DNA of 64,000 bases. It comes from Fulvia fulva (Eukaryota; Ascomycota; Dothideomycetes; Mycosphaerellales; Mycosphaerellaceae). Below, one piece after another: positions 39,634-62,139 of the stretch (positions are counted from its first letter, which is position 1; each line of letters begins with the position of its first letter). The notes under the pieces were generated by a model. The model had not been told where the DNA came from. It was given only the letters and a program-made list of their open reading frames with translations, and did no database searches. The position numbers and the translations under genes were made by a program. The DNA is taken from the NCBI RefSeq assembly GCF_020509005.1, contig NC_063021.1, positions 2,666,001-2,730,000 on the forward strand, in the 5' to 3' direction.

Positions 39634-40711
39634 GGTCGACAACGAGAATTACCTATACGTAGTATCGGCTACGAACCTCTCGTCTAGCTACTAGAGAGCT
39701 AAGTATTCTTACGCTAGAGCGTCGTAGGCGCGACGGGCGCGTAACGTAGGCGAAGCCGCGGCGAATAGAGGACTACTAGTAAAACGGGTATAAAAACTAT
39801 CCGACGAGCGTATACTCGTGTCGGGAGCGAGTCCCTCTTCTTTCTACGTGTAAGAAGGGCGCGGAACCGTGGCCTATACGCTCGATAGGACACCTCTAGT
39901 ATAAGTATAGAATTTTTACCTCCGGAGACCGTAAACCGAGCGGGCTAAGCGGCGAACATTAGACGAGCGGACTATAGAACAACAACTAAGCGGACTATAT
40001 AACGGCGTCGAGCGGACTACGAAACAATCTAGTGTTTACTAGCGGGCAATACGGTAGGTAGGTAGACACGCGACGAAGCCTATAAGGGCCTATTAAACAC
40101 CCGGTATAGGAACGAGGGTTTTGCCTAAGGCACTACCTATCCCGCTACATAACGCACCTAGTCTAATATAGTAGATTGCGACGAGGAAAAGACGATAGCC
40201 TAAGCAAGGAAAAGACGGCTATTAGGACGGGGAAAAGACGTATAATACAAGTAGATTAGTTCTATAATCGGGGAGGATCGAGGGCAGGGTAATAAGGAAC
40301 TTTATATTAGTTAGTAGGTAGAAACGTAAGGAGTACGCTACCCGGCGTAGTGTATACCCCGAGCAAACCTACGAGGTATAGACGGCCGCTTTCTAGAGAT
40401 AGGCTACGGTAACGCGAAGGGCGTCAAAACCTAGGGCGTAGTATACACTAGTAGCGACGGCTAACACTATCTATATAGCCCGAGAGGACGGATACGTATG
40501 TCGGTCAATAGAGAGCACTAAAGGGCTTAGGCCTATAGAGGTAGATATTAGCTTAAGGAGTAAATAGGGAGGGAGGGCGTAGAGGGAAGCTTTTGCTCCG
40601 GGCTAACCTCTCGAAACGAGGCTATACGGTAGTACTAGATAAGTAGGAAAGCGCGGTTAAGACTTGTTACCTTATCTCGTAGCTAGCTTACTAAATACGA
40701 TTCCTTCCTTG
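39634..40711 (+). other. Segment X, copy H (1078 bp), fused upstream of LINE-1 copy H
   Basis: This sequence is not LINE-like and not LTR-like. It recurs, complemented, at 61062-62139 with the same two ends and at 57320-57648 as a 3' fragment, each time joined to a truncated LINE-1. It starts GGTCGAC and ends GATTCCTTCCTTG. Two motif sets are visible: GAGCGGRCTA four times (39938, 39965, 39988, 40010) and GGAAAAGACG three times (40185, 40208, 40231). No long open frame or known protein motif was seen. It is probably a cDNA copy of a separate RNA, perhaps non-coding. See the findings. Confidence 0.8.
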
Positions 40712-43700
40712 CCTTATAATCTAGGAGCTATAGATTAACCCGTACTATAAGAGACTAACGACCTATAAGTCACTAGGCTATACGATATACCTACGAGGCG
40801 ACGGTAGACCCCGCACGTGCTTCTATATTAGTAAGGACATACTAGAATCCGACTAGGAGGTAGTGTACTACGTAGACGAAGAAGGCGGGGGCGATATTAC
40901 CCCCCTCTACGTAGGTAGCACCTAGATACACAACCTATATATACAACCGCTAGCCTCGAGGTCTAGCCGCGACCTAGGGGTCTATAGACACCTAGACAGT
41001 ACGCTTAAGAGACAAGGGTGCCACATCGTAGTAGGAGACTTTAATATACACTACCCTTCCTAGGAAAGCCTTATATAGCCGCACCCTATAGCCGACGAAG
41101 TACTCGACTTGATAGCGAGCAACGCAATTGCCCTTAATACCCCGAAGGACCTAGGCACCTAGAAGAGAGGGGGACTCTAAGGCACGATCGACCTCTCCTA
41201 GATCTTAGATAGCCACTACTATACGGTAACCTACTATAGGATCGAACATGAACTCGAGGCGTCGTTAGACTATATACTAGTCAGGACCTCTATTACGATA
41301 TAGATATAACGTACACTAGCGAGAACCCCTAAGCCAAACTAGGGAAAGGCCTACTAGGCTAACATCTAGGCGTACCTCGATAACTCTAAGAGGCTAGTCT
41401 AGATCGCGTAGTAGTAATATAATAGTAAAGACGAGATAGACGAAGCAGTCTAGGGGTTAATAGACGAGATAAGAAAAGCGACCTTACTTCACGTTCCGCT
41501 TACCTAACTAACGACATAGTCTAAACTATACTAGACGCCGGAGTGTACTACGGTAGTAAGAGAAGTAAGGAGAGCCCGCCGGGTATAGACGAGTAGCTAT
41601 AGCGAGGAGGCCTAGAACGTATATAGGGAGGTATACTAATAGAAGAAAGCTATAATACGAAGGGAGAAAGCAGTCGGCTAGAGGGCTATAGTAGAAGAAA
41701 TCGCCGGCAAGCTAGAGAGGATGTAGAAGCTAGCGAAATGGGCCCGATAGGACCCTACACAGGGCCCCTCCTTCTCTATCCTAGCACTACAATCGCCTAG
41801 TAGCCCGGTTAGCGACCCCGAGGCTAAGGCGCGTCTACTAGCTAGCAAGTTCTTCCCGCCCCTAGTCGAGGCTGATCTAAGCGATATAAACAGCTCTACT
41901 CCCCTAGCCCCTAGCATCGCGGTCTAATAGGAGGTGTCCGAGGGAGAAGTTGCCGCTATACTAAGGAAGTTGCCGGCGAAGAAAGCCCCGGGGTCGGATA
42001 GGATCCTAAACGAGCTACTAAAGAAGTGTAGAGATCAACTAGCCCTAGTAGTTATAGCGATCTTTAACGCCTGCCTATAGACCGGATACCACCTAATAGC
42101 TTTTAAACAATCGACGATAGTGGTCCTACGTAAGCCGTAGAAGGAAGACTATACGTAGGTAAAGTCGTACCGCCTAATTGCGCTCCTTAACACTCTTAGG
42201 AAGGCGCTTAAGAAGCTGGTTATAACGAGACTCTCCGAGGCAGCAGAGGAACACTCCCTACTCCCGGACACCTAGATAGGTGCGCGCCTATAGCGATCGA
42301 CGCTATCCGCGATAGAACTTATCACCTCTTAGGTAAAGGCTATCTAGTATAAGAATAGGGACAAGGTGGCTTCCTTACTTAGCCTAGACATATCGGGAGC
42401 CTTCGACTACGTGTTCTACTCGCGGCTACTCTATATCCTAAGGTCGAAAGGACTCCCTAAGTAGCTTATTAACTTCGTACGGTCCTACCTCTAAAACCGT
42501 AGTACGTCGATCCTAGTCGGCTAGTATAAAAGCCTATTTTAAGTAGTCTATACTAGAATCCCGTAAGGCTTAACGCTAGTACCTATTCTGTTCCTCTTCT
42601 TTATAGCGACGCTACTCCTAGCCCTAGAATCCTAGAACACCGCTACGAGCGGCTTCGTAGACGATACGAATATCCTAGCGTAGTCTTCCTCGACTAAGGA
42701 GAACTATAGGCTACTAGAAGAGAAGTATAAGATCTACGAGGACTAGGCTAGGAGGTACGGGGCTCGGTTTGCCCTAGAAAAGTACAATCTAATACACTTT
42801 ACGCGCCGGCCACGGTTCTATAATATATAAGCTTCTATCTAGATATAGGGGCATACGACTAACCCGGCAAATCAGCTTAGGATCCTCGGACTATAGGTAG
42901 ACCCGGCGCTACGGTAGAGGAAGTATATATAGGCAATATTACGGAAAGCTAAATAGAATATAGCATTATACTAGAGGCTCACTACGTCTATATAGGGGGC
43001 GGACTTCCGGTAGTTACGACTTCTATATACGGCTATTATACGGCCAGTCCTTACCTATAGTAGCTAAGTATAGTCCTTAGGCGAGAGGGCCTACCTATCG
43101 AAGGGACTCGTCGCTCCGCTAGCGAAGATCTAAAACTAATGCCTAAGGAAGGTCACCGGGGTATATAAGTCGATACTAACGAGGATGCTTAAGCACGAGA
43201 CCGCTATACCGCCGATCGACCTATATATCTAGGGACTCCGGACCTCCTACTTAGGCAAGTCGGTATAGTACCTAGTATAGAAGGTCATTACTAGTATAGT
43301 CGTAAGGGCCCGCGAATTAGTACTAGCGTATAAGGGCATTCGACCCGGAAACGAGCCGAACTACCGGGCAAGGGACGAATAGCTAGTAATATAATAGGAA
43401 GGTAAGAAATCGTTTGTAGAGCAACTATAGAAAGAGAGGTAGAACAACTAGGTTGTAGGGTATAGTAGACGCCCTTAGCTAGCGGGATAACCTAAGGAAT
43501 AGTTAGCTACGAAATCCGCGGTTAAGTACCCCCCGAAGCTTATCTACTACCGCCTTACGAGGGCATAGAGTAGTATAGCAACCCAACTACGAAGCGAACA
43601 TATCGGCCTCTAGGGGTACCTATTATAGAGGAAGGTTCTAGGATACACGAATACTAGCTGCCCCTACGGCTATCGCTCCTAGAACGTACGGTACGCACTC

Positions 43701-44090
43701 CTCGTCTATCCGAGGTGGTCGCTAGGAAGGGGGGAGTGGATAGCAAAGGCGAGGAACCGGACGATTAGGGCACTTCTTAACAACGCTAAGGACCTACGGC
43801 GTATTACGAACTAGATACTAGAGAAGGGCTAGCTAGAATAGTACCGCCTAGTAGGAGTAGTGTAGGAAGAGAGGACACGACGTAGCGCGACGAGACCGGC
43901 TAGGAGCGGGGGCTAACGGGGTAGTAATATAGACTACGTACGTTTAGAGGGAAAGCTAAACTAGACAAGGAGTAGTCGGGGGCGGGAAGGGTTTTCACCT
44001 ATTCGGGTTTCCCTTTGTACATAATAATAGATATATACCTATATAGGCCGGATAGGGTCCTAGAATAGCGGAATGACAAATCTATCTATC
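40712..44090 (+). mobile_element. LINE-1 part of chimera H, 5'-truncated (3379 bp)
   Basis: It begins inside the ORF2 endonuclease (LII*EL*INPYYK) and includes GDFNI, the whole RT with an intact FVDDTNI block at about 42654-42675, the C-terminal Cys/His region, 3' UTR and (TATC)n tail. It is fused at its 5' side to segment X. The whole insertion (39634-44090) has a 14-bp duplication. The uninterrupted site exists in the second LTR of Gypsy-6 at 49869-49882. Confidence 0.92.
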
Positions 44091-44434
44091 TATTAATAGG
44101 GCTAACCTATACGAAGCCGCGCTTAGTAGCTTTGCTTAAAACCTTATTCTAACCTGCCCTACGTTCCGAGTCTTCTACGTGCTTCTTCTAGGGTCTAGCG
44201 TAGTCGCGGGTACTCGCGGGAGTACCGTAAGTTATATAGCTACGAGTCGAAGTAAATCTATTAAGGTTTAGTAGAGTAGTAAATTTGGAGGGCTAGGTCC
44301 CGTAGTAAATATCACGGGGTATATAATTCTTAGCGCTTATATACTAAGCTAGACTTTTACTTCTTAACGACTTCTAAGTACTCTAAGGCTCTTCTGTCCC
44401 TACCTTCTATATACTCTATAGGGGGACTATTATA
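44091..44434 (-). repeat. Gypsy-6 3' LTR, part 2, starting with the right duplication of chimera H
   Basis: TATTAATAGGGCTA at 44091-44104 duplicates 39620-39633. The rest matches 49883-50204 closely and ends near 44434. The neighbouring CCCCCCC is the complement of the polypurine tract. Confidence 0.88.
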
Positions 44435-44437
44435 GTA

Positions 44438-47400
44438 GCCCCCCCGAACAAAGCTAAGTTCCTACGAAGCCGTAGTAGTTCTATATATCGAGGATGTTTA
44501 GCTTTAGTACTAGGCTTAGGCCTAATGTTATAGTCGATATACTATTAGTAAGCCCCGTCGAAGAGCTTAGATTCGAAAAGCCTACTAATATTAACCTCTA
44601 GGCCGTCTACGCGGGCGTAGTATTCTTAGATTACTTAACGATTAAAGATAATATATTAGATCGGTTCCTATAAGGTATCCTACTTAGGGTAACCTTACTA
44701 TTCGACTTTATACTTAATCGGCGGTAGCCCTTTAATATTGTTAGGCTCTACGCGGATTCCCCGGATCTTACGGACGGTATAGCCGTTAGAAGGTAGGTTA
44801 ACCGGCTCGTCGACTTCTACTTCATTAGGAGGACCTAGTATGTCTTAGTTTTAGTTCGGGAATAGGTCCTTAGCCGACGGCCGAAGGCGTACGGGATAGA
44901 AGACGTCGTAGATCTTTATATTCGTAGGAAGAGCTAGACGGTAGGCGTATAAACTAATATGCTCGGTAATCTTAAAAGGACCTAGGTTCTTCTAGCTTAG
45001 CTTCTTAGAGGGGCGGTCCGTCTTAATATTCTTAGAGTCAAGGTATACTATATCGCCTACTTAGTAGTCGGGAGCTAGCTAGCGACAACGATTAGCTTAA
45101 TCCTCGTAGATTGTTTATACGTATACTATCTCGTCGTAGACTTCTTTATAGATCTATAAGAGTATAGTAGCGAACTCGTCTACTACTTACTCGTTTACGC
45201 CTTCGGTAGGCGAGAGAGGCTCTTCTAGTTCTATACCTATACGAGGGTAGTAACCTCTCGTAGTATAGAAGGGAGAGTAGCTAGTAGTCTCCGAGTCCTA
45301 GTTACGAGTAGCGAACTCTACCGTAGGGATATACTAAGGCCAATCCTTCTAGTAGTAGTTAACGAAGTAACGAAGGACCTACTCGAGGATAGTATTCGTA
45401 ATTTCGGTCTAGCCGTCGGTCTGTAGCTAAAAACTCGTCGAGAGGTTATACTTGATGCCTAGGATAGTATATAGACGCTTCTAGAAGTACGAGATGAACT
45501 AGGAGCCTCTATTAGAGGTGATGCTATCCGGGAGGCCTTAAAAGCGCTAGACGAATTCGTAGAACTAGCGAGTAGTCTCCTTTATAGTTATACTCTAGTA
45601 CGGGATTATATACCGGTCCTTAGAGTAACGGTCTACGATTACTAGAAGGGCCTTTACCTTTACGCCGCTAAAGGTCTTACCGTAAGGAAGATCGGTAATA
45701 AAGTCTATAGTAATGTGCTTCTACGGACGATTAGGAGCCGGGAGAGGGTATAAGAGACCGTAGGGGCGGTAGCGGTTAGCTTTAGCTCTTCGACAAGTAG
45801 CGTAGTTTAGTATATAGCGGCGGACGTCCTTCTAGGAATACGGCTACTAGTAATACCTAGCGAGGAGCTTATAGGTCTTAGCTACGCCTAGGTAACCCCT
45901 AGAGGCGGAGTCGTAGACAATTTAAAGAATCTTAGCTCGGATATTAGAGCCTTCGGGCTACGGTATATAAAGCTTCTTACGGAAGTAGTCGACACCTTCC
46001 TAGAGCTCGTACTTAGATAGCGAGAAGCCCGGGAATGTCCTCGCGCTAGATTTAAGGGCTTGAACTAACTCTTAGGCGTCTAGGTTAGCATTATACGCTA
46101 TTCGTACTCGTACTATAATACCCTTAGGTTGCTCCTTATTATTAAACCCCTTAAAGTCTAATTCGGATAAGCCGTTAGTCGTTATTAAGCCCTCTTTATC
46201 GTCGTTCAAGTCCTTAGCGTCCGAGGCGTATTCTTTAGGCTCGGATTTATTATTACTCTCGTTAAGGTAGGTAGGAGCGAGTACGAGAGTAGTAAAGGAA
46301 GCGGCGAGCGTAGGCTAGCCGTTCGATAGGTACTCTCGAAGCTCGGAAGAGAGGTTGTACTCTTTAATAACTTGTTACTCTACGATTTGCTAGCCCCCTC
46401 TTCGATTAACTAGAGAGTTACTAGGGCGGCGGGTAAGGGCGTCGGCTATCGAGTTGGCCTTACCGGGCGTATACGAGATTATAAAGTTAAACCGGGAGAG
46501 GAACTCGCTCTAGCGGGCCTAGCGACGATTAAGTAGCTTACTCTTTATAAATTAGACGAGGTTCTTATAGTCGGAGCTTACTTAGACGGGTATAGTAGAG
46601 CCTTCGAGCTCGGGGCGCTACTCTTTAAAAGCTTTAACGATAGCGAGAAGCTCCTTATCGTAGATCTCGTAGTTATACTCCGTAGCGGTCATCTTCTTAG
46701 AGAGGAAGGCGATAGATAGCTAGGGAGATTTAGGCGAGCGGCGTTATAGTAGGATACCGCCTACTACGCCGTCGGATATATTAGTCTCTATACGGGTCTC
46801 TAGTTCGAAATCGAAGTGCTATAGAAGCGGGTTCTTAATAAACTTCGCTTTAAGCAAGTCAAAAGCCTCCTAGTATTCGTCGGTCTAGGTAAACTTCTTA
46901 CCCTTACGTATAAGCTTCGATAAAGGGCGTACTACGCCCGAGAATACGTAGATAAAGCGGCGGTAGAAGTTAGTAAAGCCTAGGAAACCCTAGACCTCCT
47001 TAACGTTCGTAGGAGCATCCTATTCGACGATAGCGTCGATCTTCTCTTAGTCTATCTTAATGCCGTCTACGGTAATAATTAAACTAAGGAACTTGACTTT
47101 AGTCTTCTTAAACTCGTACTTATCGATATCGAGCTATAAGCCGGCGTCTACGAGCTTCTAAAGGACCTTATAGACGTGCTCGCGGTGCTCCTCCTTAGTC
47201 TCGCTATAGACTAGGATGTCGTCGATATAGGTAGTATAGAACTAATCGAGGAACTCCTAAAGGATATTGTTAATAAAGTTCTAGAAGGTACTAGGCCCGT
47301 TATAAACGCCGAAGGGTATAACGAGCGACTCGAATAGCCCGTAGCGAGTACGGAAGGCTATAAGATACTCGTATCCTTCTACTATTCGTAACTTATTAAA

Positions 47401-48440
47401 CGTAGCGATAATATCGAGCTTAGTAAAGTACTTGGCCTTAGAGAGGTGTTTAAGCGTCTCCTAAATCAGTAGTATTAGGTAGCGGTTCTTCTTTATAATA
47501 GCTTTTAAGCCTCGGTAGTCTACGTAGAAGCGTAGGCTACCGCCGGGCTTCTTAACGAATATAACGGGACTACTAGCGCTAGAACGGCTCGCTTAAATAA
47601 ACCCCTTCTTTAGGTTTTCTTCGAGGTATCTCTTAAGGACGATAAGCTATTCTCGGGACATAGAATATAGCGGTCCGAACGGTACCTCTATACCTTCTTC
47701 TAGCTTAATCTTATAGTCGTAAGGGCGATAAGGAGGTAGCTCGTCTACGGCTTTAGTATCGAATACGTAGAGGATGTAGTATACCTAAGGAGGGACCTTC
47801 GTAGTAGGGTCGGTAGGTATACGCTTCTTATCGAGCTTCTCGAGGGCGATGTCGATATCGCGGAGAGAGGCTACGAAGACTTAAGCTTTAGGCTACTTAG
47901 TAGTAGTAGTAAAGGTAGCGGCGTTTACCTAGAAGATCTTAGTATACTTAGGACCGCGCTAAGGCGGCGGAGAAGGCGGAGGCGCCGGAGGAGCTTCTAG
48001 AGGGAAACTGATAGTAAGTGAAGTCTAGTCGATAATAGGTTAGTATTATCTAAACTAGGGGAGGCCGAGGATAAACTTCTAATACGGTAGAGACGTAAGG
48101 AAGCTAGTGATCGACATACGCTTTCCTCCGAGAGTGATTGACGTGTATATAACATAAGTAATCTTACTAGTAGTAGTCTCCGTGCCGTTAAAGAGTTTAA
48201 GGGTACGAGGGTACTTTAGTTCCTACGGTTCGAGGTTAAGAGAGGTCGCGAGTTTATAGTCTATAAAAGACTCGCCTAGTACGCTAGTGTCTATAAGAGT
48301 AGGATTAGAAGAAGAGAGTTTCTTTAAGCCGATATTTATATTCGTAACGAACGGTTTATAAGCGTAGTCCTTACCCGTCTTGTCGTATAGGTCTAGCTAT
48401 ACTATATTGATCCTTAACTTCTTTCCTCTCTTTACTTTCG
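44438..48440 (-). pseudogene. Gypsy-6 pol: protease, RT, RNase H, integrase
   Basis: On the minus strand the protease near 48255-48310 reads LIDTSVLGESFIDYKLATSL (the usual D-S-G is D-T-S). RT shows [16 protein letters not shown] and an intact TTYIDDILVYSETKEEH near 47195-47240. RNase H shows [20 protein letters not shown] and SSDYKNLV*F. The integrase zinc part is GYLGVAKTYKLLARYYQ and YATCRRAKANRYRPYGLL (first His is Tyr). The core reads HITIDFITDLPYGKTFSG (45670-45720), IVDRYSKDRYIIP and ITSNRGS*FI (Asn for the second Asp). A C-terminal domain of uncertain type lies at about 44600-44760. Confidence 0.9.
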
Positions 48441-49650: not shown

Positions 49651-49685
49651 ACTCGAGTAGTTAATAGTTTGTTAGTCTTTCGTAA

Positions 49686-50204: not shown

Positions 50205-51171
50205 CTAGTAGGAATTATAAAGAACCCGAATCCTCGAACTAGGTCTAGTATATAGGTATTAAGAGTACGAGCCGAGGCCGCTAAAGCTATATAATAAGAA
50301 CTCGAAGAGGAGATCCGGTAGGAAGAACTCGGTTAGTAGGAGGTAGAGATAATTAGAGACGCCGGTTCTAGGGCTAGTAGAAGCTAGTTAACGGTAGCGT
50401 TAGGGGAGACTCTTAGAAGGAGGGCACCTAAGCCTCGAGCTAAGTTATGGCCTACGCCCTCGGAATATCCGGTAGGGCCTATTAATACCCTATTCGTATA
50501 GCGTAAACGGCTATAGAATATAAAGACGATAAGCATTAATAACTACGTCCGATAGTACGGTACTAGAGATAGGCCCGTTACTAAGGAGGAGGGAGTGACC
50601 TATTAAATTGATCAAATCCTTTAGAATAGGTTTCTAAACGTTAATACCCGGGACTAGTTTCGGTAAAGTTACTAGTTTAAGACTACCTTGTTTAGGAGAG
50701 TAGTAAATACCCCTAATCTATAGTCTAAGCTTACTACTGTCCGTAAGTTAGCTAGCTAAGAAGGGACTAAAGTCCGTACGACTTATGTCGCTACCTATAA
50801 AGACGAGGAAGAAGAGGCTAATAAAGAAGTCTTTCGGGATAATTATTAAGCTCGCTTTATAGGTGTATTCTTAACGATATTATATAGTAAGGATACTATC
50901 CCTACCGCCGAGTTGTACGAGAACATTAAAAAGATCGGTCTCTCTAGTATACTAGACGATTTTGTAATAGTACCTAGCCCTTAGGTAGTTACCGAGCTTA
51001 GGACGAGTAAAGGTTAGACTCGAGCCCTACTTAACAAGGGATCTAAAGTCAATATTATTAGCCCGAGGATAGTATATAAGTTTGGCTTGCCTATCGTACC
51101 TAGCGCCTACTTGTCCTTTCGAGGAGCGGGTAGAAGAGCGAAGTTTAAGGGAGTAATTTCAAAGCTTAATA
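50205..51171 (+). pseudogene. Gypsy-5 gag/pol, piece 4, with protease start
   Basis: The frame reads GIIKNPNPRTR, then a Glu/Arg-rich stretch (EAAKAI**ELEEEIR*EE). Further on are TLFVQRKRL*NIKTISINNY and FRDNY*ARFIGVFLTILYSK. It ends with the protease: ALLNKGSKVNIISPRIVYKF (about 51030-51090), in which Asn stands for the catalytic Asp. LINE-1 copy E interrupts it at 51171 and the domain continues at 56221. Confidence 0.83.
51158..51171. repeat. Left target-site duplication of LINE-1 copy E
   Basis: TTCAAAGCTTAATA matches TTTAAAGCTTAATA at 56207-56220. The single difference is C against T next to A, a RIP-type change after insertion. Confidence 0.87.
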
Positions 51172-54100
51172 GATAAATAGATTTGTTATTCCCCTGTTCT
51201 AGGACTCTATCCGGCCAATATAGGTATATATCTATTGTTATATACAAAGGGAAACCCGAATAGGTAGAAACCCTTCCCGCCCCCGACTACTCCTTATCTA
51301 GATTAGCTTTTCCTCTAAACGTACGTAGTCTATATCACTACCCCGTTAGCCCCCGCTCCTAGCCGGTCTCGTCGCGCTACGTCGTGTCCTCTCTTCCTAC
51401 ACTACTCCTACTACGCGGTACTGTTCTAGCCAGCCCTTCTCTAGTATCTAGTTCGTAATACGCCGTAGGTCCTTAGCGTTGTTAAGAAGTGCCCTAATCG
51501 TCCGGTTCCTCGCCTTTACTATCTACTCCCCCCTTCCTAGCGACTACCTCGGATAGACGAGGAGTACGTACCGTACGTTCTAGGAGCGATAGCCGTAGAG
51601 GTAGCTAGTATTCGTATATCCTAGAACCTTCCTCTATAATAGGTACCCCTAGAGGCCGATGTGTTCGCTTCGTAGTTAGGTTACTATACTACTCTATACC
51701 CTCGTAAGGCGGTAGTAGATAAGCTTCGGGGGGTACTTAACCGCGGATTTCGTAGCTAACTATTCCTTAGGTTATCCCGCTAGCTAAGGGCGTCTACTAT
51801 GCCCTACAACCTAGTTGTTCCACCTCTCTTTCTATAGTTGCTCTATAAACGATTTCTTACCTTCCTATTATATTACTAGCTATTCGTCCCTTACCCGGTA
51901 GTTCGGCTCGTTTCCGGGTCGAATACCCTTATACGCTAGTACTAACTCGCGGGCCCTTACGACTATACTAGTAATGACCTTCTATACTAGGTACTATGCC
52001 GACTTGCCTAAGTAGGAGGTCCGTAGTCCCTAGATATATAGGTAGATCGGCGGTAGAGCGGTCTCGTACTTAAGTATCCTCGTTAGTATCGACTTATATA
52101 CCCCGGTAACCTTCCTTAGGCATTAGTTTTGAATCTTCGCTAGCGGCGCGACGAGTCCCTTCGATAGGTAGGCCCTCTCGCCTAAGGACTATACTTAGCT
52201 ACTATAGGTAAGGACTAGCCGTATAATAGCCGTATATAGAAGTCGTAACTACCGGAAGTCCGCCCCCTATATAGACGTAGTGAGCCTCTAGTATAATACT
52301 ATATTCTATTTAGCTTTCCGTAATATTGCCTATACGTACTTCCTCTACCGTAGCGCCGGGTCTACCTATAGTCCGAGGATCCTAAGCTGATTTGCCGGGT
52401 TAGTCGTATACCCCTATATCTAGATAGAAGCTTGTAAATTATAGAACCGTAGCCGGCGCGTAAAGTGTATTAGATTGTACCTTTCTAGGGTAAACCGAGC
52501 CCCGTACCTCCTAGCCTAGTCCTCGTAGATCTTGTACTTCTCTTCTAGTAGCCTATAGTTCTCCTTAGTCGAGGAAGACTACGCTAGGATGTTTATATCG
52601 TCTACGAAGCCACTCGTAGCGGTGTTCTAGGATTCTAGGGCTAGGAGTAGCGTCGCTATAAAGAAGAGGAACAGAATAGGTACTAGCGTTAAGCCTTACG
52701 GGATTCTACTATAGACTACTTGAAATAGGCTTCTATACTAGCCGACTAGGATCGAGGTGCTACGGTTTTAGAGGTAGGACCGTACGAAGTTAATAAGCTA
52801 CGTAGGGAGTCCTTTCGACCTTAGGATATAGAGTAGCCGCGGGTATAACACGTAGTCGAAGGCTCCCGATATGTCTAGGCTAAGTAAGGAAGCTACCTTG
52901 TCTCTATTCTTATACTAGATAGCCTTTACCTAAGAGGTGATAAGTTCTATCGCGGATCGCGTCGATCGCTATAGGCGCGTACCTATCTAGGTGTCCGGGA
53001 GTAGGGAGTATTCCTCTACCGCCTCGGAGAGTCTCGTTATAACTAGCTTCTTAAGCGCCTTCCTAAGAGTATTAAGGAGCGCAATTAGGCGGTACGACTT
53101 TACCTACGTATAGTCTTCCTTTTACGGCTTACGTAGGACTACTATCGTTAATTGTTTAAAAGCTATCGGGTAGTACCCGGTCTATAGGCAGGCGTTAAAG
53201 ATCGCTATAACTACTAGGGCTAGTTGATCTCTACACTTCTTTAGTAGCTCGTTTAGGATCCTATCCGGCCCCGGGGCTTTCTTCGCCGGCAACTTCCTTA
53301 GTATAGCGGCAACTTCTCCCTCGGACACCTCCTATTAGACCGCGATACTAGGGGCTAGGGGAGTAGAGCTATTTATGTCGCTTAGATCAGCCTCGACTAG
53401 GGGTAGGAAGAACTTACTAGCTAGTAGACGCGCCTTAGCCTCGGGGTCGCTAACCGGGCTACTAGGCGATTGTAGCGCTAGGATAGAGAAGGAGGGGCCC
53501 TATATAGGGTCCTATCGGGCCCATTTCGCTAGCTTCTATATCCTCTCTAGCTTACCGGCGATTTCTTCTACTATAGCCCTCTAGCCGACTACTTTCTCCC
53601 TTCGTATTATAGCTTTCTTCTATTAGTATACCTCCCTATATACGTTCTAGGCCTCCTCGCTATAGCTGCTCGTCTACACTCGGCGGGCTCTCCTTACTTC
53701 TCTTACTACCGTAGTGTACTTCGGCGTCTAGTATAGTTTAGACTATATTGTTAGTTAGGTAAGCGGAACGTAAAGTAAGGTCGCTTTTCTTATTTCGTCT
53801 ATTAACGCCTAGACTACTTTGTCTATCTCGTCTTTACTATTATATTACTACTACGTAATCTAGACTAGCCTCTTAGAGTTATCGAGGTACGCCTAGATGT
53901 TAGCCTAGTAGGCCTTTCCCTAGTTTAGCTTAAGGGTTCTCGCTAGTATACGTTATATCTATATCGTAATAGAGGTCCTGACTAGTATATAGTCTAACGA
54001 CGCCTCGAGTTTATATTCGATCCTATAGTAGGTTACTGTATAGTAGTAGCTATCTAAGATCGAGGAGAGGTCGATCGTGCCTTAGAATCCCCCTCTCTTC

Positions 54101-56112
54101 TATATATATAGGTCCTTCGGGGTATTAAGGGCAATTACGTTGCTCGCTATTAAGTCGAGTACTTCGTCGGCTATAGGGTACGGCTATATAAGGCTTTCCT
54201 AGGAAGGGTAGTATATATTAAAGTCTCCTACTACAATATGGCACCCTTGTCTCTTAAGCTACTATCTAGGTGTCTAAAGACCCCTAGGTCGCGGCTAGAC
54301 CTCGAGGCTAGCGGTTATATATATAGGTTGTGTATCTAGGTGCTACCTACGTAGAGGGAGGTAATATCGCCCCCGCCTTCTTCGTCTACGTAGTACACTA
54401 CCTCCTAGTCGGATTCTAGTATGTCCTTACTAATATAGAAGTACGTACGGGGTCTACCGTCGCCTCGTAGGTATGTCGTATAGCCTAGTAACTTGTAGGT
54501 CGTTAGTCTCTTATAGTACGGGTTAATCTATAGCTCCTAGATTATAAGGACGTAGTAGACGCGCGGGTCCGCCTCGTGTAGGAGATGGTTCTAGACTATA
54601 TCCTTGCTATAGTTAACATTATACTAGATAATACTAAGCGTGTCGAGGCTAGTTATCGGCATCGACAATCATTTCCTCTATAGCGTCCTATGTCCTACTA
54701 CCCTATACGTCCTAGTCTACGCCTATCGGCTATATAATAAAGGGGAGTCGGGCCTAGTTAGATTCCCTCGCCGTAGCTAGTAGAGTACGTGGCCTCCCGT
54801 ACGCCCTAGGTTACGTATCCTTTATATCGGTCTCGGCCCTAGGGCGCTTATACCCGACCGCCGCTAGTTAGTTCCGGTATAGGCTAGCCTTACGGTCGCC
54901 GTAGAATCTTAGGGCGACGGTTCTATTTATGATTGCCTTGTTTTTCGCTAGTTTCCGCTATAGGCATTCCGTACTATACGATAGGTAGTACCCCGGACAG
55001 TTCGCGTACCGTCTCGTAGTCGATATATAGTCCCTAGATATATAGTCTCCTATATAGTTCGAGTAGGCCTACTTGTTTATATACGTATAGGTTTAGTGTC
55101 TATACTGTTAGTATTTAAAGTATTAGAGGACAGGAAAGGAGAAGGAGTACTTTTCTACTATCTTAAGACTATATTACTAGACTAGGCCTTGTTCTATTAC
55201 TAGATCCGCCGCTTTCGCGTCTTATAGCTATACTATTAGCGCCGAGGCCTTCTTACCTTCTAGCCATTTCCTATAGACCTAAGTCGCCTTCTAGATTAGA
55301 GAGTTAAGAGTGACCGGGTTGTCCTCTTAGAGAGCGCGTAGGTAACCCTAGTTAGTTAGGTCAAACTCCTTAGGCATGTCGTAGACTAGGATCGTAAATT
55401 GTTTCGTTAAGACCTTCGCTAATGCCGTAACCTTAGATGCCTACTATAGCTATGCCTCTAGGTACCTCCTAGTAGTAGTAGAGCTAGTATAGATCTATAG
55501 AGTGCTATTAGACTATTAGTTCACTACGACTACCCCTAGTTAATCAATTCGTTAGGCGAGCTCCTTATTCGATAGCTTCGTAACTTCGGCCTAGTCTTCC
55601 TTTACTATAATACGGATCGTAACTATATCGTACGTTAGACGGGGGCCTAGTATCGATACCGCGACCGATGCCTAGCTATAGGGGTATTGATTCCGGGTGG
55701 CCTTATTAATCGCCTAGGACGTCGTCCTCATTTCTTATTACCCTCGGTAATACGATAGTATAAGCGCCGTACGTAGCTAAGTGATTATTACCTATAGAGA
55801 CCGGTAAGGGAGCTAATTATTAGTTTCTATACTTTTTACGTCCTCTATAAGTTGCTACTAGTTGTCTTAGGGGAGCTTCGCCTATAGAGCCGTAGGCGCC
55901 GTTAGTACCGTAGCCTAGCCTACTATTATCTAGGAGTTGCCTAATGTAGCTAGGCACCTCCGCGGCGTTTAGAGCTAAAGAAATAGGGTGAAGAGAGCTT
56001 TAAGCTATCTAGATTGAATAAGGTAGAACTCCCTTAATCCTAGGGGTAGTGGCCTGCTTTATATATCGTTAGAATGACCTTGATAAGAGCTTTCGAATGT
56101 GTCGTGTTTTAG
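51172..56112 (-). mobile_element. LINE-1 copy E, full length (4941 bp)
   Basis: It is inverted relative to copy D and of the same length. In minus-strand order it has the 5' UTR (from 56112), ORF1 (about 55900-54670, with the zinc block near 54960-55130), and ORF2. ORF2 has endonuclease (about 54650-53960), RT (about 53350-52560, FVDDI-type block near 52590-52610) and the C-terminal Cys/His region near 51590-51700. The 3' UTR and tail (GATAAATAGATTT on the plus strand) end at 51172. RIP stops occur throughout. It lies in the Gypsy-5 protease. Confidence 0.92.
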
Positions 56113-56206
56113 GGCCGGGGTCTACTGTCGCCTCGTAGTAGGGGGGCGAATGATCTAGTTCGCTATATAAGTATAGGACGACCTACTAATAAACTATTAA
56201 GTACTC
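56113..56206 (-). other. Extra 5' sequence on LINE-1 copy E (94 bp)
   Basis: It lies between the LINE-1 5' end and the right duplication, so it entered with copy E. About 25 bases (56118-56142) match LINE-1 ORF2 in the sense direction (CTACGAGGCGAC, then AGACCCCG, as at 33306-33332). The remaining 64 bases have no recognised source. Copies B and D also carry extra 5' sequence. Confidence 0.65.
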
Positions 56207-56220
56207 TTTAAAGCTTAATA

Positions 56221-56457
56221 CTTAGGTGTTTAGTATATACTACTAGATCGATATACTTGTCTCCGCTAATCTAAATTCGCCTATAATCCTTAGCCGCCGT
56301 TAGTATAGGAAGGTACGACTAATAGGCCGTAACTACGACGATAGATTATAGGAGGGAATAATCGCTAGTAGGAAAGGTAAAAGTATAATGTTCACGGCTA
56401 TTATAGGTACTAATAAGTACAAAACTCTTTAAGAACTTCTAGAGTCCTCGGTAAATA
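56221..56457 (+). pseudogene. Gypsy-5 protease, piece 5
   Basis: The protease reading continues with SANLNSPIILSRR*YRKVRL and RNYDDRL*EGIIASRKGKSI. It is cut by chimera F after GTCCTCGGTAAATA (56444-56457), the left duplication of that insertion. Confidence 0.75.
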
Positions 56458-57319
56458 GATAGATAGATTTGTTATTCCCCTGTTCTAGGACCCTATCCGG
56501 CCTATATAGGTATATATCTATTGTTATATACAAAGGGAAACCCGAATAGGTGAAAACCCTTCCCGCCCCCGACTACTCCTTATCTAGTTTAGCTTTCCCT
56601 CTAAACGTACGTAGTCTATATCACTACCCCGTTAGCCCCCGCTCCTAGCCGGTCTCGTCGCGCTACGTCGTATCCTCTCTTCCTATACTACTCCTACTAG
56701 GCGGTACTGTTCTAGCTAGCCCTTCTCTAGTATCTAGTTCGTAATACGCCGTAGGTCCTTAGCGTTATTAAGAAGTGCCCTAATCGTCCGGTTCCTTACC
56801 TTTGCTATCTACTCCCCCCTTCCTAGCGACTACCTCGGACAGACGAGGAGTACGTACCGTACGTTCTAGGAGCGATAGCCGTAGGGGCAGCTAGTATTCG
56901 TATATCCTAGAACCTTCCTCTATAATAGGTACCCCTAGAGGCCGATATCTTCGCTTCGTAGTTGGGTTACTATACTACTCTATACCCTCGTAAGGCGGTA
57001 GTAGATAAGCTTCGGGGGGTACTTGACCGCGGATTTTGTAGCTAACTATTCCTTAGGTTGTCCCGCTAGCTAAGGGCGTCTACTATGCCCTATAACCTAG
57101 TTGTTCTACCTCTCTTTCTATAGTTGCTCTATAAACGATTTCTTACCTTCCTATTATATTACTAGCTATTCGTCCCTTACCCGGTAGTTCGGCTCGGTTC
57201 CGGGTCGAATACCCCTATACGCTAGTACTAATTCGCGGGCCCTTACGACTGTACTAGCGATGACCTTCTATACTAGGTACTGTGCCGACTTGCCTAAGTA
57301 GGAGGTCCGTAGTCCCTAG
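56458..57319 (-). mobile_element. LINE-1 part of chimera F (862 bp)
   Basis: It has the tail and 3' UTR at the left and ORF2 C-terminal sequence up to GTCCCTAG at 57319. At its 5' side (right) it joins segment X. The LINE breakpoint differs from those of H and G. The whole insertion, 56458-57648, is flanked by GTCCTCGGTAAATA. Confidence 0.9.
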
Positions 57320-57648
57320 TAAGGAAGGAATCGTATTTAGTAAGCTAGCTACGAGATAAGGTAATAAGTCTTAACCGCGCTTTCCTACTTATCTAGCACT
57401 ACCGTATAGCCTCGTTTCGAGAGGTTAGCCCGGAGCAAAAGCTTCCCTCTACGCCCTCCCTCCCTATTTACTCCTTAAGCCAATATCTCCCTCTATAGGC
57501 CTAAGCCCTTTAGTACTCTCTATTGACCGACATACGCATCCGTCCTCTCGGGCTATATAGACAGTATTAGCCGTCGCTACTAGTATACACCACGCCCTAG
57601 GTTTTGACGCCCTTCGCGTTACCGTAGCCTATCTCTAGAAAGCGGCCG
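57320..57648 (-). other. Segment X, copy F, 3' 329 bp only
   Basis: It matches the last third of X in copies H and G, with the same junction base at its LINE side. It is truncated on its 5' side at 57648, where the right target duplication (57649-57662) begins. This is what incomplete reverse transcription of the X template would give. Confidence 0.82.
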
Positions 57649-57662
57649 GTCCTCGGTAAATA

Positions 57663-59350
57663 CGAACGCGGGTTAATTTACGGTTGTTAACCCGCTATAA
57701 GTATTCGAAGTCCGGTTTTGAAACAAGTCCGCTTTTCTAGTCTAGTCGGGGAGACCTTAGTAAATATATTAGGGGCGGAGTGTTCTAATAATACGGCGTA
57801 TCGACATCGATAAGAAGGTATAACGAAGCTAAACCCTAAGCCTATAGACACGACTGTCTTCGACTACTTTAAGAACTACGGCGGCTCCGTATTATAATAA
57901 AGAGAAAATGTCCTCGACCTTAGCCCGTATTCGAAGAAATTACTAGAACTACTCGGGAACCGCTAAGACTTAAGCGCTAAGGTGACTACTAACGCTCTAG
58001 GAGAGTAGATCATTATAAATATATACTCCGTGTAGGGCGACTAGTATATAGAGATCCTAAAACAGGGCCAGATTAATAGGTAGGCTTAGAAACGAGACGT
58101 AGGGTTATATAGACCCGGTATTAGGATGCCGTATATATTTACTATATATAAGCAAAAAGCTAATAAGAAAAGACCTGTTAATACGAGCGTTTACGAGAGG
58201 CCTTAGTCGAAAGTAGATAGTAATATAGATTAGAAGCGGAAGGCCCTTTACTAGGAATCTCTAATACTAGTAGGGTAAGGCCCGTTTAATAGGAGGTATC
58301 TTATTAAAAAGTTCTCTAGTATCGAGCGCGGCTCGAGGATTATACCTAAAAGGCTCGCTAGTATTAAGGTTAGTATCGCTCTCTCGGGTAAGGAAAGACA
58401 AATGTTTAATAAAATGCTCTTTAACCGAGAAGGTGTCCTAGCGTAGGATTTTAGCTATATACGGTAGATTAGATATAACGTTATACCTCCTTAGAAGATC
58501 ATAACGATTACGTAAAAACCGTAGTAGGCGCGGAACATTCGGTTATACCTAAGCTTACGAGCGATTATAGAACAGATAATCCGCGCTCGAATTAAGAACA
58601 GAATTCTTGAATATAGTCAAGGTGCTTATACGAATGCTTAGTTCTTAGTAGCGAGGAAGGTCGAGCTAAATAGCAAAGCTATACTATATAGGTTGATTAA
58701 CTCCGCTATACTCTTAAACGAGGTAACGATAAGGGATACGAACATTCCCCTAGATACGGACGGGTTCTCGGAAGACTTTACTAGGTATAGAGTAGCCTCT
58801 TTAGTAGACTTGTTTTTAGGGTACGACTAGATCACGCTTAACAAAAGTAGCCGGGATTTAACGGCCTTTATAACGCCTCTTAGGCTTATACGGTATATAA
58901 TGTTACTATAGGGTACGAGGAACTTAGTTGCTCTATTCGTATAGGTAGTAACTAAGGTGTTAATAGACTATATTTCTTACCGAGCAAAACTATTTCTTAA
59001 CGATATCGGCGTAAAAGGTCCTACTAAGGACTATAGTAACGCTAAGGTAGAGCCTAGCCTTCGACTATAGGTCGTAGAACATATTATATATTTTGATCTT
59101 ATTCTTACGGACCTAGAGAGGGCCGGAGCGGTAGTCGTAGGGGAGAAGTCGTAGTGGCTTTATAAGACCCTAAAGATCGTAGGCTATATTACTAGCCCGA
59201 GCGGCCGCTATCTAGATCCTAAGGTAGTAGCTAAGATCTTGAACTAGCTAACCCTAAAGTACGTAAAGGACGTTCGAGTTTATATTAGGATCTATATTTA
59301 CTTCCGGATTTAGGTCCTCTAGTTCGTATTTGTCGCTCGGCCAATATATA
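57663..59350 (+). pseudogene. Gypsy-5 reverse transcriptase, piece 6
   Basis: A pol N-terminal part (57663-58600) leads to RT. Readable blocks are RLINSAILLNEVTIRDTNIP (from about 58690), GFSEDFTRYRVASLVDLFLG (58762-58821), SRDLTAFITPLRLIRY and LFLNDIGVKGPTKD (about 58988-59030). In the last, the catalytic pair is N-D rather than D-D. It continues LILTDLERAGAVVVGEKS*W, LKIVGYITSPSGRYLDP and KYVKDVRVYIRIYIYFRI. I recognise this as a fungal Gypsy lineage distinct from the chromoviruses in the left block. Chimera G interrupts it at 59350. Confidence 0.87.
59338..59350. repeat. Left target-site duplication of chimera G
   Basis: CGGCCAATATATA recurs at 62140-62152. The Gypsy-5 reading is VARPIY on the left and ARPIYKLLRKDVEF after it. 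Confidence 0.87.
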
Positions 59351-61061
59351 GATAGATAGATAGATTTGTCATTCCCCTGTTCTAGGACCCTATCCGGCCT
59401 ATACAGGTATATATCTATTGTTATATACAAAGGGAAACCCGAATAGGTAAAAACCCTTCCCGCCCCCGACTACTCCTTATCTAGATTAGCTTTCCCTCTG
59501 AACGTACGTAGTCTATGTCACTACCCCGTTAGCCCCCGCTCCTAGCCGGTCTCGTCGCGCTACGTCGTGTCCTCTCTTCCTATACTGCTCCTACTAGGCG
59601 GTACTGTTCTAGCCAGCCCTTCTCTAGTATCTAGTTCGTAATGCGCCGTAGGTCTTTAGCGTTGTTAAGAAGTGCCCTAATCGTCCGGTTCCTCGCCTTT
59701 ACTATCCACTCCCCCCTTCCTAGCGACCACCTCGGACAGACGAGGAGTACGTACCGTACGTTCTAGGAGCGATAGCCGTAGGGGTAGCTAGTATTCGTAT
59801 ATCCTAGGACCTTCCTCTATGATAGGTACCCCTAGAGGCCGATGTGTTCGCTTCGTAGTTAGGTTGCTATGCTACTCTATGCCCTCGTAAGGCGGTAGTA
59901 GATAAGCTTCGGGGGGTGCTTGACCGCGGATTTTGTAGCTAACTATTCCTTAGGTTGTCCCGCTAGCTAAGGGCGTCCACTATGCCCTACAACCTAGTTG
60001 TTCTACCTCTCTTTCTATAGTTGCCCTACAAACGATTTCTTACCTTCCTATTATATTGCTAGCTGTTCGTCCCTTGCCCGGTAGTTCGGCTCGTTTCCGG
60101 GTCGAATGCCCTTATACGCTAGTACTAATTCGCGGGCCCTTACGACTGTACTAGCGATGACCTTCTGTACTAGGTACTGTGCCGACTTGCCTAAGTAGGA
60201 GGTCCGTAGTCCCTAGATGTATAGGTCGATCGGCGGTATAGCGGTCTCGTGCTTAAGCATCCTCGTTAGTGTCGACTTATATACCCCGGTGACCTTCCTT
60301 AGGCATTAGTTTTGGATCTTCGCTAGCGGCGCGACGAGTCCCTTCGATAGGCAGGCCCTCTCGCCTAAGGACCACACTTAGCTACTATAGGTAAGGACTG
60401 GCCGTATAATAGCCGTATATAGAAGTCGTGACTACCGGAAGTCCGCCCCCTATATAGACGTAGTGAGCCTCTGGCATGATGCTATATTCTGTTTAGCTTT
60501 CCGTAATATTGCCTATACGTGCTTCCTCCACCGTAGCGCCGGGTCCACCTATAGTCCGAGGATCCTGAGCTGATTTGCCGGGTTAGTCGTGTGCCCCTAT
60601 ATCTGGATAGAAGCTTGCATATTGTAGAACCGTGGCCGGCGCGTAAAGTGTATCAGATTGTACTTTTCTGGGGCAAACCGAGCCCCGTACCTCCTAGCCC
60701 AGTCCTCGCAGATCTTGTGCTTCTCTTCTAGTAGCCTACAGTTCTCCTTAGTCGAGGAAGACCACGCTAGGATGTTTGTGTCGTCTACGAAGCCGCTCGT
60801 AGCGGTGTTCTAGGATTCTAGGGCTGGGAGCAGCGTCGCTATAAAGAAGAGGAACAGAATAGGTGCTAGCGTTAAGCCTTACGGGATTCTAGTGTAGACT
60901 GCTTGAAATGGGCTTCTGTACTAGCCGACTAGGATCGACGTACTGCGGTTTTGGAGGTAGGACCGTACGAAGTTAACAAGCTACTCAGGGAGTCCTTTCG
61001 ACCTTAGGATGTAGAGAAGCCGCGGGTGTGACACGTAGTCGAAGGCTCCCGATATGTCTAG
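59351..61061 (-). mobile_element. LINE-1 part of chimera G (1711 bp), least mutated copy
   Basis: It contains the tail, 3' UTR, ORF2 C-terminus and part of RT, including the FVDDTNI-type block near 60775-60800. It ends within RT at GATATGTCTAG. Compared with copies A, C, E and F it keeps many more CA and TG dinucleotides (for example TTAAGCATCCTCG, CACACTTAG, CTGGCATGATGC), so it has been hit least by RIP and is probably the youngest. At its 5' side it joins segment X. Confidence 0.9.
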
Positions 61062-62139
61062 TAAGGAAGGAATCGTATTTAGCAAGCTAGCTACGAGATA
61101 AGGTGACAAGTCTTAACCGCGCTTTCCTACTCATCTAGCACCACCGTATAGCCTCGTTTCGAGAGGTTAGCCCGGAGCAAAAGCTTCCCTCTACGCCCTC
61201 CCTCCCTGTTTGCTCCTTAAGCCAATATCCACCTCTATAGGCCTAAGCCCTTTAGTACTCTCTATTGACCGACATGCGTATCCGTCCTCTCGGGCTGTAT
61301 AGACAGTGTCAGCCGTCGCTGCTAGTGTACACTACGCCCTAGGTTTTGACGCCCTTCGCGTTACCGTAGCCTATCTCTAGAAAGCGGCCGTCTATGCCTC
61401 GCAGGTTTGCTCGGGGCACACACCACGCCGGGCAGCGTACTCCTTGCGTTTCCACCTACTAACCAATATGAAGTTCCTTATCACCCTGCCCTCGATCCTC
61501 CCCGATCATAGAACTAATCCACTTATATTGTACGTCTTTTCCCCGTCCTAACAGCCGCCTTTTCCTTGCTCAGGCTATCGTCTTTTCCTCGTCGTAATCT
61601 ACTATGTCAGACTAGGTGCGTTGTGTAGCGGGACAGGCAGTGCCTTAGGCAAAACCCTCGTTCCTATACCGGGTGTTCAACAGGCCCTTATAGGCTTCGT
61701 CGCGTGTCCACCTACCTACCGCATTGCCCGCTGGCAAACACTAGATTGTTTCGTAGTCCGCTCGACGCCGTTGTATAGTCCGCTCAGTTGTTGTTCTGTA
61801 GTCCGCTCGTCTAATGTTCGTCGCTTAGCCCGCTCGGTTTGCGGTCTCCGGAGGTAAAAATTCTGTACTTATACTAGAGGTGTCCTATCGAGCGTATAGG
61901 CTACGGTTCCGCGCCCTTCTTACACGTAGAAAGAAGAGGGACTCGCTCCCGACACGAGTACACGCTCGTCGGATGGTTTTCATACCCGTTTTGCTAGTAG
62001 TCCTCTATTCGCCGCGGCTTCGCCTACGCTACGCGCCCGTCGCGCCCACGACGCTCTAGCGTAAGAATACTTGGCTCTCTCGTAGCTAGACGAGAGGTTC
62101 GTAGCCGACACTACGTACAGGTGATTCTCGTCGTCGACC
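61062..62139 (-). other. Segment X, copy G (1078 bp), least mutated
   Basis: It has exactly the length and both ends of copy H, complemented. The motif sets are at 61826, 61799, 61776 and 61754 (complement TAGYCCGCTC) and at 61579, 61556 and 61533 (complement CGYCTTTTCC), with the same spacing as in copy H. This copy retains CA/TG and is the best version for identifying X. The longest open stretch, 61621-61857 on the opposite strand, has no recognisable domain and straddles the motif array, so it is probably not a gene. Confidence 0.82.

What the first reader, a model, noticed from the sequence alone, without database searches (positions are those of the whole stretch)
39634..62139. Segment X: a discrete 1078-bp sequence repeatedly captured at the 5' side of LINE-1 insertions
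Seen: three separate insertions (H 39634-44090, F 56458-57648, G 59351-62139), each with its own 13-14 bp target duplication, consist of a truncated LINE-1 preceded by X. The X side of the junction is the same in all three (GATTCCTTCCTT plus A or G), while the LINE breakpoints differ (40712, 57319, 61061 in window terms). Copies H and G share the identical X start (GGTCGAC) and length; F has only the last 329 bp. Known: LINE reverse transcriptases can jump templates, and composite Magnaporthe elements (MINE, a LINE tail fused to a sequence called WEIRD) were explained that way. Inference: X is the 3'-end-defined copy of one RNA that this LINE's reverse transcriptase preferentially jumps onto, making a recurrent two-RNA element.
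Basis: partly seen in the sequence, partly recalled or inferred. Interest (0 to 1): 0.88.

Follow-up and report, generated by a model that had tools for sequence, protein, structure and literature searches.

The report
Ribozyme-capped RNA captured by many LINEs
A fungal-looking genome holds hundreds of copies of one 1.08-kb sequence, joined in every sampled case by the same end to jumping-gene (LINE) fragments cut at many different points, most likely because the LINE copying enzyme hops onto one particular RNA whose front end is predicted to be made by a self-cutting ribozyme.

Summary
In 120 of 120 sampled junctions X ends ...CCTTCCTT plus G (or A, which fits RIP), then enters other sequence at 64 distinct breakpoints; 117 of 120 link to LINEs. 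Four main LINE families, 37-55% identical in protein, are used, yet X is almost identical across them (2 of 1,077 sites between two families). All 33 complete copies have different 14-bp flanks with a TATA-like signature. Thirty LINE 5'-end loci of the window's family hold no X. LINE breakpoints share R-Y|C-C (RYYY at 39 of 47, 2.4 expected). This supports RT jumping onto one discrete RNA, as proposed for Magnaporthe MINE/WEIRD. New here: the scale, the several LINE families, and an HDV-ribozyme fold (P1, P1.1, P2, P3, P4, catalytic-C motif) beginning at X nucleotide 1, which would explain the fixed 5' end; it is predicted, and the Rfam match is below threshold. No X source gene was seen in the sample; what makes the 3' end is unknown. 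New variant of a known kind.

The parts
39620..39633 (+). Insertion H, left target-site duplication TATTAATAGGGCTA
   Evidence: sequence
39634..40710 (+). Insertion H, X copy (nt 1-1077, RIP-mutated)
   Evidence: blastn, 94% to copy G
39634..39710 (+). H: predicted HDV-like ribozyme (X nt 1-77); P2 intact, one pair each of P1, P3, P1.1 and P4 broken
40711..40711 (+). H: junction base G (last base of X)
40712..44090 (+). Insertion H, 5'-truncated LINE of the window's family, ending in (ATCT)n
44091..44104 (+). Insertion H, right target-site duplication
56444..56457 (-). Insertion F, target-site duplication (LINE side)
56458..57319 (-). Insertion F, 5'-truncated LINE
57320..57320 (-). F: junction base (A on the minus strand, RIP form of G)
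57321..57648 (-). Insertion F, X nt 750-1077 (5'-truncated X)
57649..57662 (-). Insertion F, target-site duplication (X side)
59338..59350 (-). Insertion G, target-site duplication (LINE side)
59351..61061 (-). Insertion G, 5'-truncated LINE; breakpoint at RT motif A codons (LDISGAFD), shared by 8 of 120 sampled junctions
61062..61062 (-). G: junction base (A on the minus strand, RIP form of G)
61063..62139 (-). Insertion G, complete X copy (nt 1-1077)
62063..62139 (-). G: predicted HDV-like ribozyme (X nt 1-77); P1, P1.1, P2 and P4 intact, one P3 pair broken
62140..62152 (-). Insertion G, target-site duplication (X side)
31668..36618 (+). Long copy of the window's LINE family without X (one of the references for breakpoints)

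Best explanation
X is one 1,078-base sequence that sits, in every sampled case by the same 3' end, on LINE fragments cut at many different points, and it likely gets there because LINE reverse transcriptases of several families leave their own RNA at R-Y|C-C sites and jump onto the 3' end of one discrete X RNA, whose fixed 5' end is predicted to be made by a hepatitis-delta-type self-cleaving ribozyme. Shown: the fixed ends, the varied breakpoints, the motif, the several LINE families, the near-identity of X among them and the separate target sites. Inferred: target-primed reverse transcription starts on the LINE 3' tail, leaves the LINE at a purine-pyrimidine step, copies X from ...CCUUCCUUG to its first base, and the cDNA joins the target. 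Predicted: X nt 1-77 fold as an HDV-like double pseudoknot cutting just before G1, so that X or X-LINE RNA can be freed from longer transcripts. Unknown: the locus that makes X RNA and what forms its 3' end.
For: Fixed 3' end: 120 of 120 junctions continue with G or A after CCTTCCTT, into 64 distinct breakpoints. Fixed 5' end: of 41 X copies held with their 3' end, 32 begin at X nt 1 and one (L025) at nt 2; 8 are 5'-truncated, as expected of reverse transcription. Separate insertions: 33 of 33 have different upstream 14-mers, with T at -14 in 28 and A at -13 in 26; duplications of 13-15 bp read directly for H, F, G, L007 and L032. Shared RNA: X of L018 (LINE family 1) and L022 (family 3) differ at 2 sites, L016 (family 0) and L018 at 4, all transitions, though these families are 37-55% identical in protein (Pfam RVT_1). 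Breakpoint motif: RYYY in 39 of 47 breakpoints, 2.4 expected. Double jump: L077/L078 read X(1-1077)-A-X(371-1077)-LINE. Ribozyme: an HDV layout with P1, P2, P3 and P4 and C.AA in J4/2 begins exactly at nt 1; 2 of 28,025 G starts of the window have such a layout and 0 with C.AA, 1 and 0 of 20,000 shuffles; of 4,227 Rfam families the only match up to E 10 in the 5' stretch is an HDV ribozyme (RF02682), over the whole model, starting at X nt 1; 767 of 824 pair cells hold, 255-473 when slid.
Against: The Rfam match is weak (13.1 bits, gathering 44, E 2.6); it is absent from the scan of the whole locus and from the gathering-threshold scan. P3 and P1.1 are intact in only 9 of 33 copies; the breaks are RIP-type changes. 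Both HDV descriptors were written after seeing X; a rival P2 (8-14 with 45-51) competes with P4 for the same bases, and weaker layouts of the looser descriptor occur elsewhere in X. X copies are too alike for covariation. No transcript data. No X source locus seen. 16 of 64 breakpoints had no LINE reference. Some same-breakpoint copies may be re-mobilised composites rather than new jumps. Two junctions, L020 and L038_2, lead into sequence I could not link to a LINE.
Confidence: 0.75

Rival explanations
1. X-LINE composites arose few times and then spread as non-autonomous units, with X as their promoter or ribozyme end and the LINE 3' tail as the priming end; shared breakpoints mark families, like SIDEs of Drosophila.
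For: 20 of 64 breakpoint groups hold two or more copies, up to 13; L004 and the window copy G share a breakpoint and an X without transversions.
Against: 44 of 64 groups are single in the sample; L002, L023 and L025 share a breakpoint but carry different X haplotypes, as do L021 and L030; 28 of 120 junctions fall at the same RT motif A codons in at least three LINE families, which points to hot spots. X is nearly identical between different LINE families.
Confidence: 0.15
2. X is the 5' untranslated part of an autonomous LINE not yet seen in full, and the chimeras come from jumps or deletions that keep its 5' module.
For: HDV-like ribozymes are known from LINE 5' ends such as R2 and L1Tc (PMC3774820 passages, PMC4035085 abstract); only the window's LINE family was examined for its 5' end; L137 has X in front of a LINE 5' region.
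Against: No common continuation after CCTTCCTTG in 120 junctions; the 40 scored X matches all end at nt 1077 or 1078; 30 of 30 LINE 5'-end loci of the window's family hold no X.
Confidence: 0.1
3. X is a spliced leader joined to LINE RNA by trans-splicing before reverse transcription.
For: Constant end on the donor side, many acceptor sites.
Against: The bases before the retained LINE part are R-Y (48 of 48 have a pyrimidine at the replaced position), not AG; an X-to-X junction (L077) exists.
Confidence: 0.03
4. The HDV-like layout is a coincidence and the X 5' end is an ordinary transcription start.
For: Rfam score below threshold; descriptors written post hoc; no covariation available.
Against: All five helices and a C.AA motif in J4/2 with the first pair at exactly nt 1; 1 of 20,000 shuffles has the layout, 0 with C.AA; the one Rfam match is an HDV ribozyme aligned from nt 1.
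Confidence: 0.2

Closest known systems
MINE / WEIRD-MGL chimeras of Magnaporthe grisea (PMC2104539; parts 1-4 of 5 of the text read)
   Same: A ~1.1-kb non-coding, full-length 5' partner fused to 5'-truncated LINE, 10-20 bp duplications, many LINE breakpoints with a C-rich motif (GCC*A/U there), shared breakpoints, a tripartite double jump, no solo copy found.
   Different: 33 chimeras reported there against 608 X 3' ends here; mainly one LINE (MGL) plus a SINE there against four main LINE families here; no ribozyme described in the parts read. Two published 20-nt WEIRD primers (PMC3978060 passages) do not match X better than shuffled X. WEIRD itself was not available here.
R2 and R2/R1 hybrid SIDEs of Drosophila (PMC3414825; abstract and section list read)
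   Same: A 5' HDV-like ribozyme module joined to the 3' end of a LINE, even of a different LINE; 14-bp duplications for the hybrid; template jumps onto U12 snRNA and tRNA also reported.
   Different: SIDEs are called rare and derive from R2 itself; X is 1.08 kb, was not found at the 5' ends examined for the window's LINE family, and is joined at dozens of breakpoints.
L1Tc/ingi clade elements with the Pr77 HDV-like ribozyme in trypanosomatids (PMC4035085; abstract and section list read)
   Same: A ribozyme-bearing module of LINE-type elements, widely spread.
   Different: Pr77 is part of the elements themselves.
Fungal variant HDV ribozymes (PMC5640933; passages read)
   Same: HDV-class ribozymes exist in fungi and two tested ones self-cleave.
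   Different: Those have a P4 partly replaced by a loop E and typically a C-G pair at the cleavage site; X has a plain 7-bp P4 and a G.U pair.
U6 snRNA-L1 chimeras of mammals (named in PMC2104539; otherwise recalled)
   Same: Jump of a LINE RT onto a small RNA.
   Different: A short nuclear RNA of known function; X is long and unidentified.

Membership tests
MINE-like template-jump chimera | 5' part is a full-length copy of one non-LINE RNA | tested here: met
   33 of 41 X copies begin at X nt 1 or 2; 120 of 120 junctions have the same X end; that X exists as an RNA is inferred
MINE-like template-jump chimera | 3' part is a 5'-truncated LINE with varying breakpoints | tested here: met
   64 distinct breakpoints in 120 junctions; 117 of 120 linked to LINEs by DNA or protein, not linked: L020, L038_2, and L077 which enters X
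MINE-like template-jump chimera | 10-20 bp target duplications | tested here: met
   13-15 bp read for H, F, G, L007, L032; most other loci end before the LINE 3' end and could not be read
MINE-like template-jump chimera | C-rich motif at the LINE breakpoint | tested here: met
   RYYY 39 of 47, expected 2.4; not identical to the published GCC*A/U
WEIRD | Sequence homology to WEIRD | tested here: inconclusive
   two 20-nt primers do not match; the rest of WEIRD not available
WEIRD | Expressed as a ~1.1-kb non-coding RNA | not testable with these tools
   no transcript data; the longest stop-free stretch in X is 67 aa sense, 76 aa antisense
HDV-like ribozyme | Nested double pseudoknot with P1, P1.1, P2, P3, P4 and G1 at the cleavage site | tested here: met
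   layout at nt 1, window and shuffle controls, pair counts; predicted only
HDV-like ribozyme | Catalytic C in J4/2 followed by N-A-A | tested here: met
   J4/2 AGCCAAGU, C66; C66 is A in at least one of 33 copies; that this C is catalytic is recalled knowledge of HDV and inference
HDV-like ribozyme | Rfam HDV family above its gathering score | tested here: not met
   RF02682 13.1 bits against 44
HDV-like ribozyme | Self-cleavage before G1 | not testable with these tools
   needs an in vitro assay
SIDE (ribozyme plus LINE 3' end unit) | Ribozyme module derived from the LINE's own 5' end | tested here: not met
   0 of 30 LINE 5'-end loci of the window's family hold X; other families not tested

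The most novel reading that the evidence does not exclude
X is a self-processing RNA parasite: a ribozyme-ended RNA without a LINE of its own that exploits the template jump of every LINE family in the genome, entering the chromosomes hundreds of times in trans and being re-made from the read-through transcripts of its own insertions by 5' self-cleavage, so that it needs no dedicated gene. WEIRD of Magnaporthe would then be a second member of this class.
Probability: 0.2. Interest if true: 0.9.

Novelty: new variant of a known kind. Interest (0 to 1): 0.76.

Why it matters
The 2007 Magnaporthe work left open what WEIRD is, why LINEs choose it and where its gene is. This genome offers almost twenty times more events, several LINE families as independent replicates, a single-base acceptor end and a measurable donor motif, so the template jump of LINE reverse transcriptases can be studied statistically. 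A 5' ribozyme on the captured RNA would give a concrete reason for its fixed 5' end and a simple bench test. It would also make template jumping a regular route for spreading an RNA rather than an occasional accident.

Tried and rejected
Rejected: X as the 5' part of the window's LINE family; one common breakpoint; segmental duplication as the general cause, though the trio L008/L112/L113 looks like one; canonical cis or trans splicing (breakpoint context); protein-coding X; a known Rfam RNA at gathering score; head-to-tail X-X units as a source in the sample, 0 of 120 junctions are followed within 60 nt by an X start; a viral contig carrying X, 0 exact matches of one 30-mer in viral contigs (records of or near this genome may be left out there); an HDV layout on the minus strand of X, none. 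The idea that the junction bases CC come from X was dropped because L077, L002 and L033 keep only the G (or A).

Mistakes and filters: one search used pair indices off by one; its 0-of-33 counts are wrong and are replaced. The first ribozyme model used another P2 and no P4; one search replaces it. One search counted L038_2 and L077 into a LINE family only through an X piece inside L038; one search cut at X and corrects this (117, not 118, of 120 linked). One fetched junction (L144) was dropped from the 120 by my exact-match filter; by eye it has G and the same breakpoint as L002. L001 duplicates window copy G and was left out. Same-breakpoint groups were made in purine/pyrimidine code with up to 8 of 60 mismatches, so near breakpoints could be merged or split. 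Three truncated LINEs without X in the window were too few to say whether the R-Y|C-C motif is special to jumps.

Not obtained: the count of LINE 3' ends, a genome-wide test for head-to-tail X, and the 3' sides of X starts on contig 1 that had no listed 3' end. Paper searches listed nothing that ties WEIRD or fungal LINE chimeras to ribozymes; most subscription papers are not held, so this does not show absence in print.
Full report
Setting. The window is contig 10, 2666001-2730000, of a 67.2-Mb genome in 14 contigs. The window's LINE family has long copies at 31668-36618 and 51163-56112 and several truncated ones.

Observation. X is 1,077 nt plus one junction base. Over 120 junctions that base is G in 64 and A in 56. 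TG-to-TA is a RIP-type change, so a single original G explains both.

Scale. The 20-nt X 3' end (up to one mismatch) has 608 places in the genome, its reversed control 0. A 33-place pattern for the X 5' end has 533, control 0. A DNA search with X scored 40 of 657 candidates; all 40 end at X nt 1077 or 1078.

Junction sample. I held 121 junction places: three in the window, 38 within loci from searches and 80 fetched as 340-base stretches. One (L144) fell to an exact-match filter. In the other 120, X ends in CCTTCCTT followed by G or A, and 64 distinct breakpoints follow. After cutting each downstream part at any further X, 117 of 120 link to LINE sequence by DNA or protein; L077 enters X itself, L020 and L038_2 could not be linked. 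The four largest DNA families hold 44, 39 (one is a reference copy), 14 and 9 members and are 37-55% identical in protein over their longest matches. Stop-free stretches of single young copies match Pfam RVT_1 and Exo_endo_phos_2, one (L010) a zinc knuckle, and one of nine (L012) nothing.

X is newly acquired. X copies attached to different LINE families are nearly identical: L018 (family 1) and L022 (family 3) differ at 2 of 1,077 sites, L016 (family 0) and L018 at 4, all transitions. Conversely, L002, L023 and L025 share one LINE breakpoint but carry X of different haplotypes, as do L021 and L030. Inheritance of X together with one LINE does not explain this; repeated capture from a common source does. 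The 14-mers just before X differ in all 33 complete copies, while T at -14 (28 of 33) and A at -13 (26 of 33) recur, as expected of separate insertions at a preferred target with ~14-bp duplications. Duplications could be read directly in H, F, G, L007 and L032; most other loci stop before the LINE 3' end.

X is not the 5' end of the window's LINE family. Thirty loci at its 5' end show differing flanks (some lie in other LINE copies) without the X end, and none of the 30 holds any X within the LINE part or about 1.5 kb before it. These were the best matches to a query from the window; the other LINE families were not examined in this way. One junction (L137) has X in front of the LINE 5' region, which fits a jump after nearly complete copying.

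Donor motif. For 48 of 64 breakpoints a copy without X gave the sequence across the breakpoint (for L077 the donor is X). Position -1 is a purine in 44, position 1 (the base that X's G replaces) a pyrimidine in 48, position 2 C in 40, T in 7 and G in 1, position 3 a pyrimidine in 43. Leaving out L077, R-Y-Y-Y is found in 39 of 47 against 2.4 expected from five young LINE sequences. Several exceptions and Ts fit RIP of CA. L077, L002 and L033 show X contributing only G (or A), so X RNA would end ...CCUUCCUUG and the CC belongs to the LINE. Magnaporthe MGL chimeras have GCC*A/U at this place (PMC2104539, parts 1-4 read), so a C-rich exit site recurs in another fungus. 28 of 120 junctions fall within a few bases of the codons for L-D-I-x-G, which I recall as RT motif A, in at least three LINE families: a hot spot at the same place of diverged LINEs.

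Double jump. At contig 1, 4549237-4551321 a complete X is followed by A and X 371-1077, then by LINE at the breakpoint also used by insertion H. This fits two successive jumps, as in the Magnaporthe tripartite element; a later DNA rearrangement is not excluded.

The 5' end. 33 of 41 X copies reach X nt 1 or 2, the rest are 5'-truncated. X nt 1-77 can form P1 (1-7 with 31-37, G1.U37 wobble), P2 (11-16 with 72-77), P3 (18-20 with 28-30), P1.1 (22-23 with 38-39) and P4 (44-50 with 57-63), with J4/2 AGCCAAGU holding C66 before N-A-A: the order and spacing of an HDV ribozyme. A descriptor for P1, P2, P3 and P4 finds 2 of 28,025 G starts in the window and 1 of 20,000 shuffles of X 2-100; with C.AA in J4/2, 0 and 0. 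A looser descriptor without P4 found 74 of 128,000 start positions (only G starts tested), 2 scoring as high as X, and 19 of 20,000 shuffles, none as high; it also finds weaker layouts elsewhere on the plus strand of X. Both descriptors were written after seeing X. Rfam at permissive threshold gives one match in the 151-base stretch, RF02682 (HDV ribozyme of F. prausnitzii), over the whole model and starting at X nt 1, pairing the same region as P4, but at 13.1 bits against a gathering score of 44 and E 2.6; the scan of the whole locus and the gathering scan show none. Over 33 complete copies 767 of 824 pair cells are standard pairs against 255-473 when the partner is slid by 1-3. P1 is intact in 25, P2 in 32, P4 in 32, P3 and P1.1 in 9 of 33; the frequent breaks are RIP-type. 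The old X lineage differs from the young one at a base of the P4 loop. X copies are too alike for covariation. A 7-bp stem 8-14/45-51 is a rival for the same bases as P4. The meaning of C66 and the likeness of L3 (U and CG at HDV spacing) rest on recall of the HDV ribozyme. I take the ribozyme as likely, not shown. If real, the fixed 5' end of X is a cleavage site and any X-LINE insertion transcribed from outside could free its own RNA.

What X is. It has no long reading frame, no Rfam family above threshold, no match of one 30-mer in viral contigs, and two published WEIRD primers do not fit it. No stand-alone copy was recognised in the sample (L020 and L038_2 stay open), the same puzzle that was reported for WEIRD. 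The 3' end is unexplained: 0 of 120 junctions are followed by another X start, so tandem units cut by the same ribozyme were not seen.

Assessment. Works like: template jumping of LINE RT onto an RNA 3' end (MINE, U6-L1), combined with a ribozyme 5' module as in R2-derived SIDEs. Membership: it meets the structural features of MINE-like chimeras; homology to WEIRD is untested apart from two primers; HDV-like ribozyme membership meets the fold, fails the Rfam score and awaits an assay; SIDE membership fails for the one LINE family tested. Novel are the scale, the several LINE families and the predicted ribozyme.

Noticed in passing
G000 contig 1, 8826064-8836478 (L008, L112, L113): Three X-LINE copies 4.67 kb apart with the same breakpoint: looks like a tandem segmental duplication.
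   Followed up: partly
window 19874-24389: A LINE 3' fragment lies directly upstream, same strand, of a LINE truncated elsewhere; looks like a LINE-to-LINE jump, next to an inverted LINE copy.
   Followed up: partly
L003 and L026: A second X piece in opposite orientation just upstream of the sampled one (nested insertions).
   Followed up: no
L039-L068: 5' ends of the LINE copies vary by some 10-15 bases and several carry short A-rich additions.
   Followed up: no
L002, L009, L018, L033: Young X-LINE copies keep 499-codon stop-free RT or endonuclease stretches, so several LINE families were recently active despite RIP.
   Followed up: partly
L010, L012, L013, L015, L020, L021, L023, L025, L030, L032: An older X lineage (a transversion in the predicted P4 loop; in L012, L013 and L021 also a 5-nt deletion near nt 213) shows that the X source changed over time.
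   Followed up: partly
L038: Two X fragments both starting at X nt 406 lie 1.35 kb apart with the same 22 bases before them; likely a local duplication.
   Followed up: no
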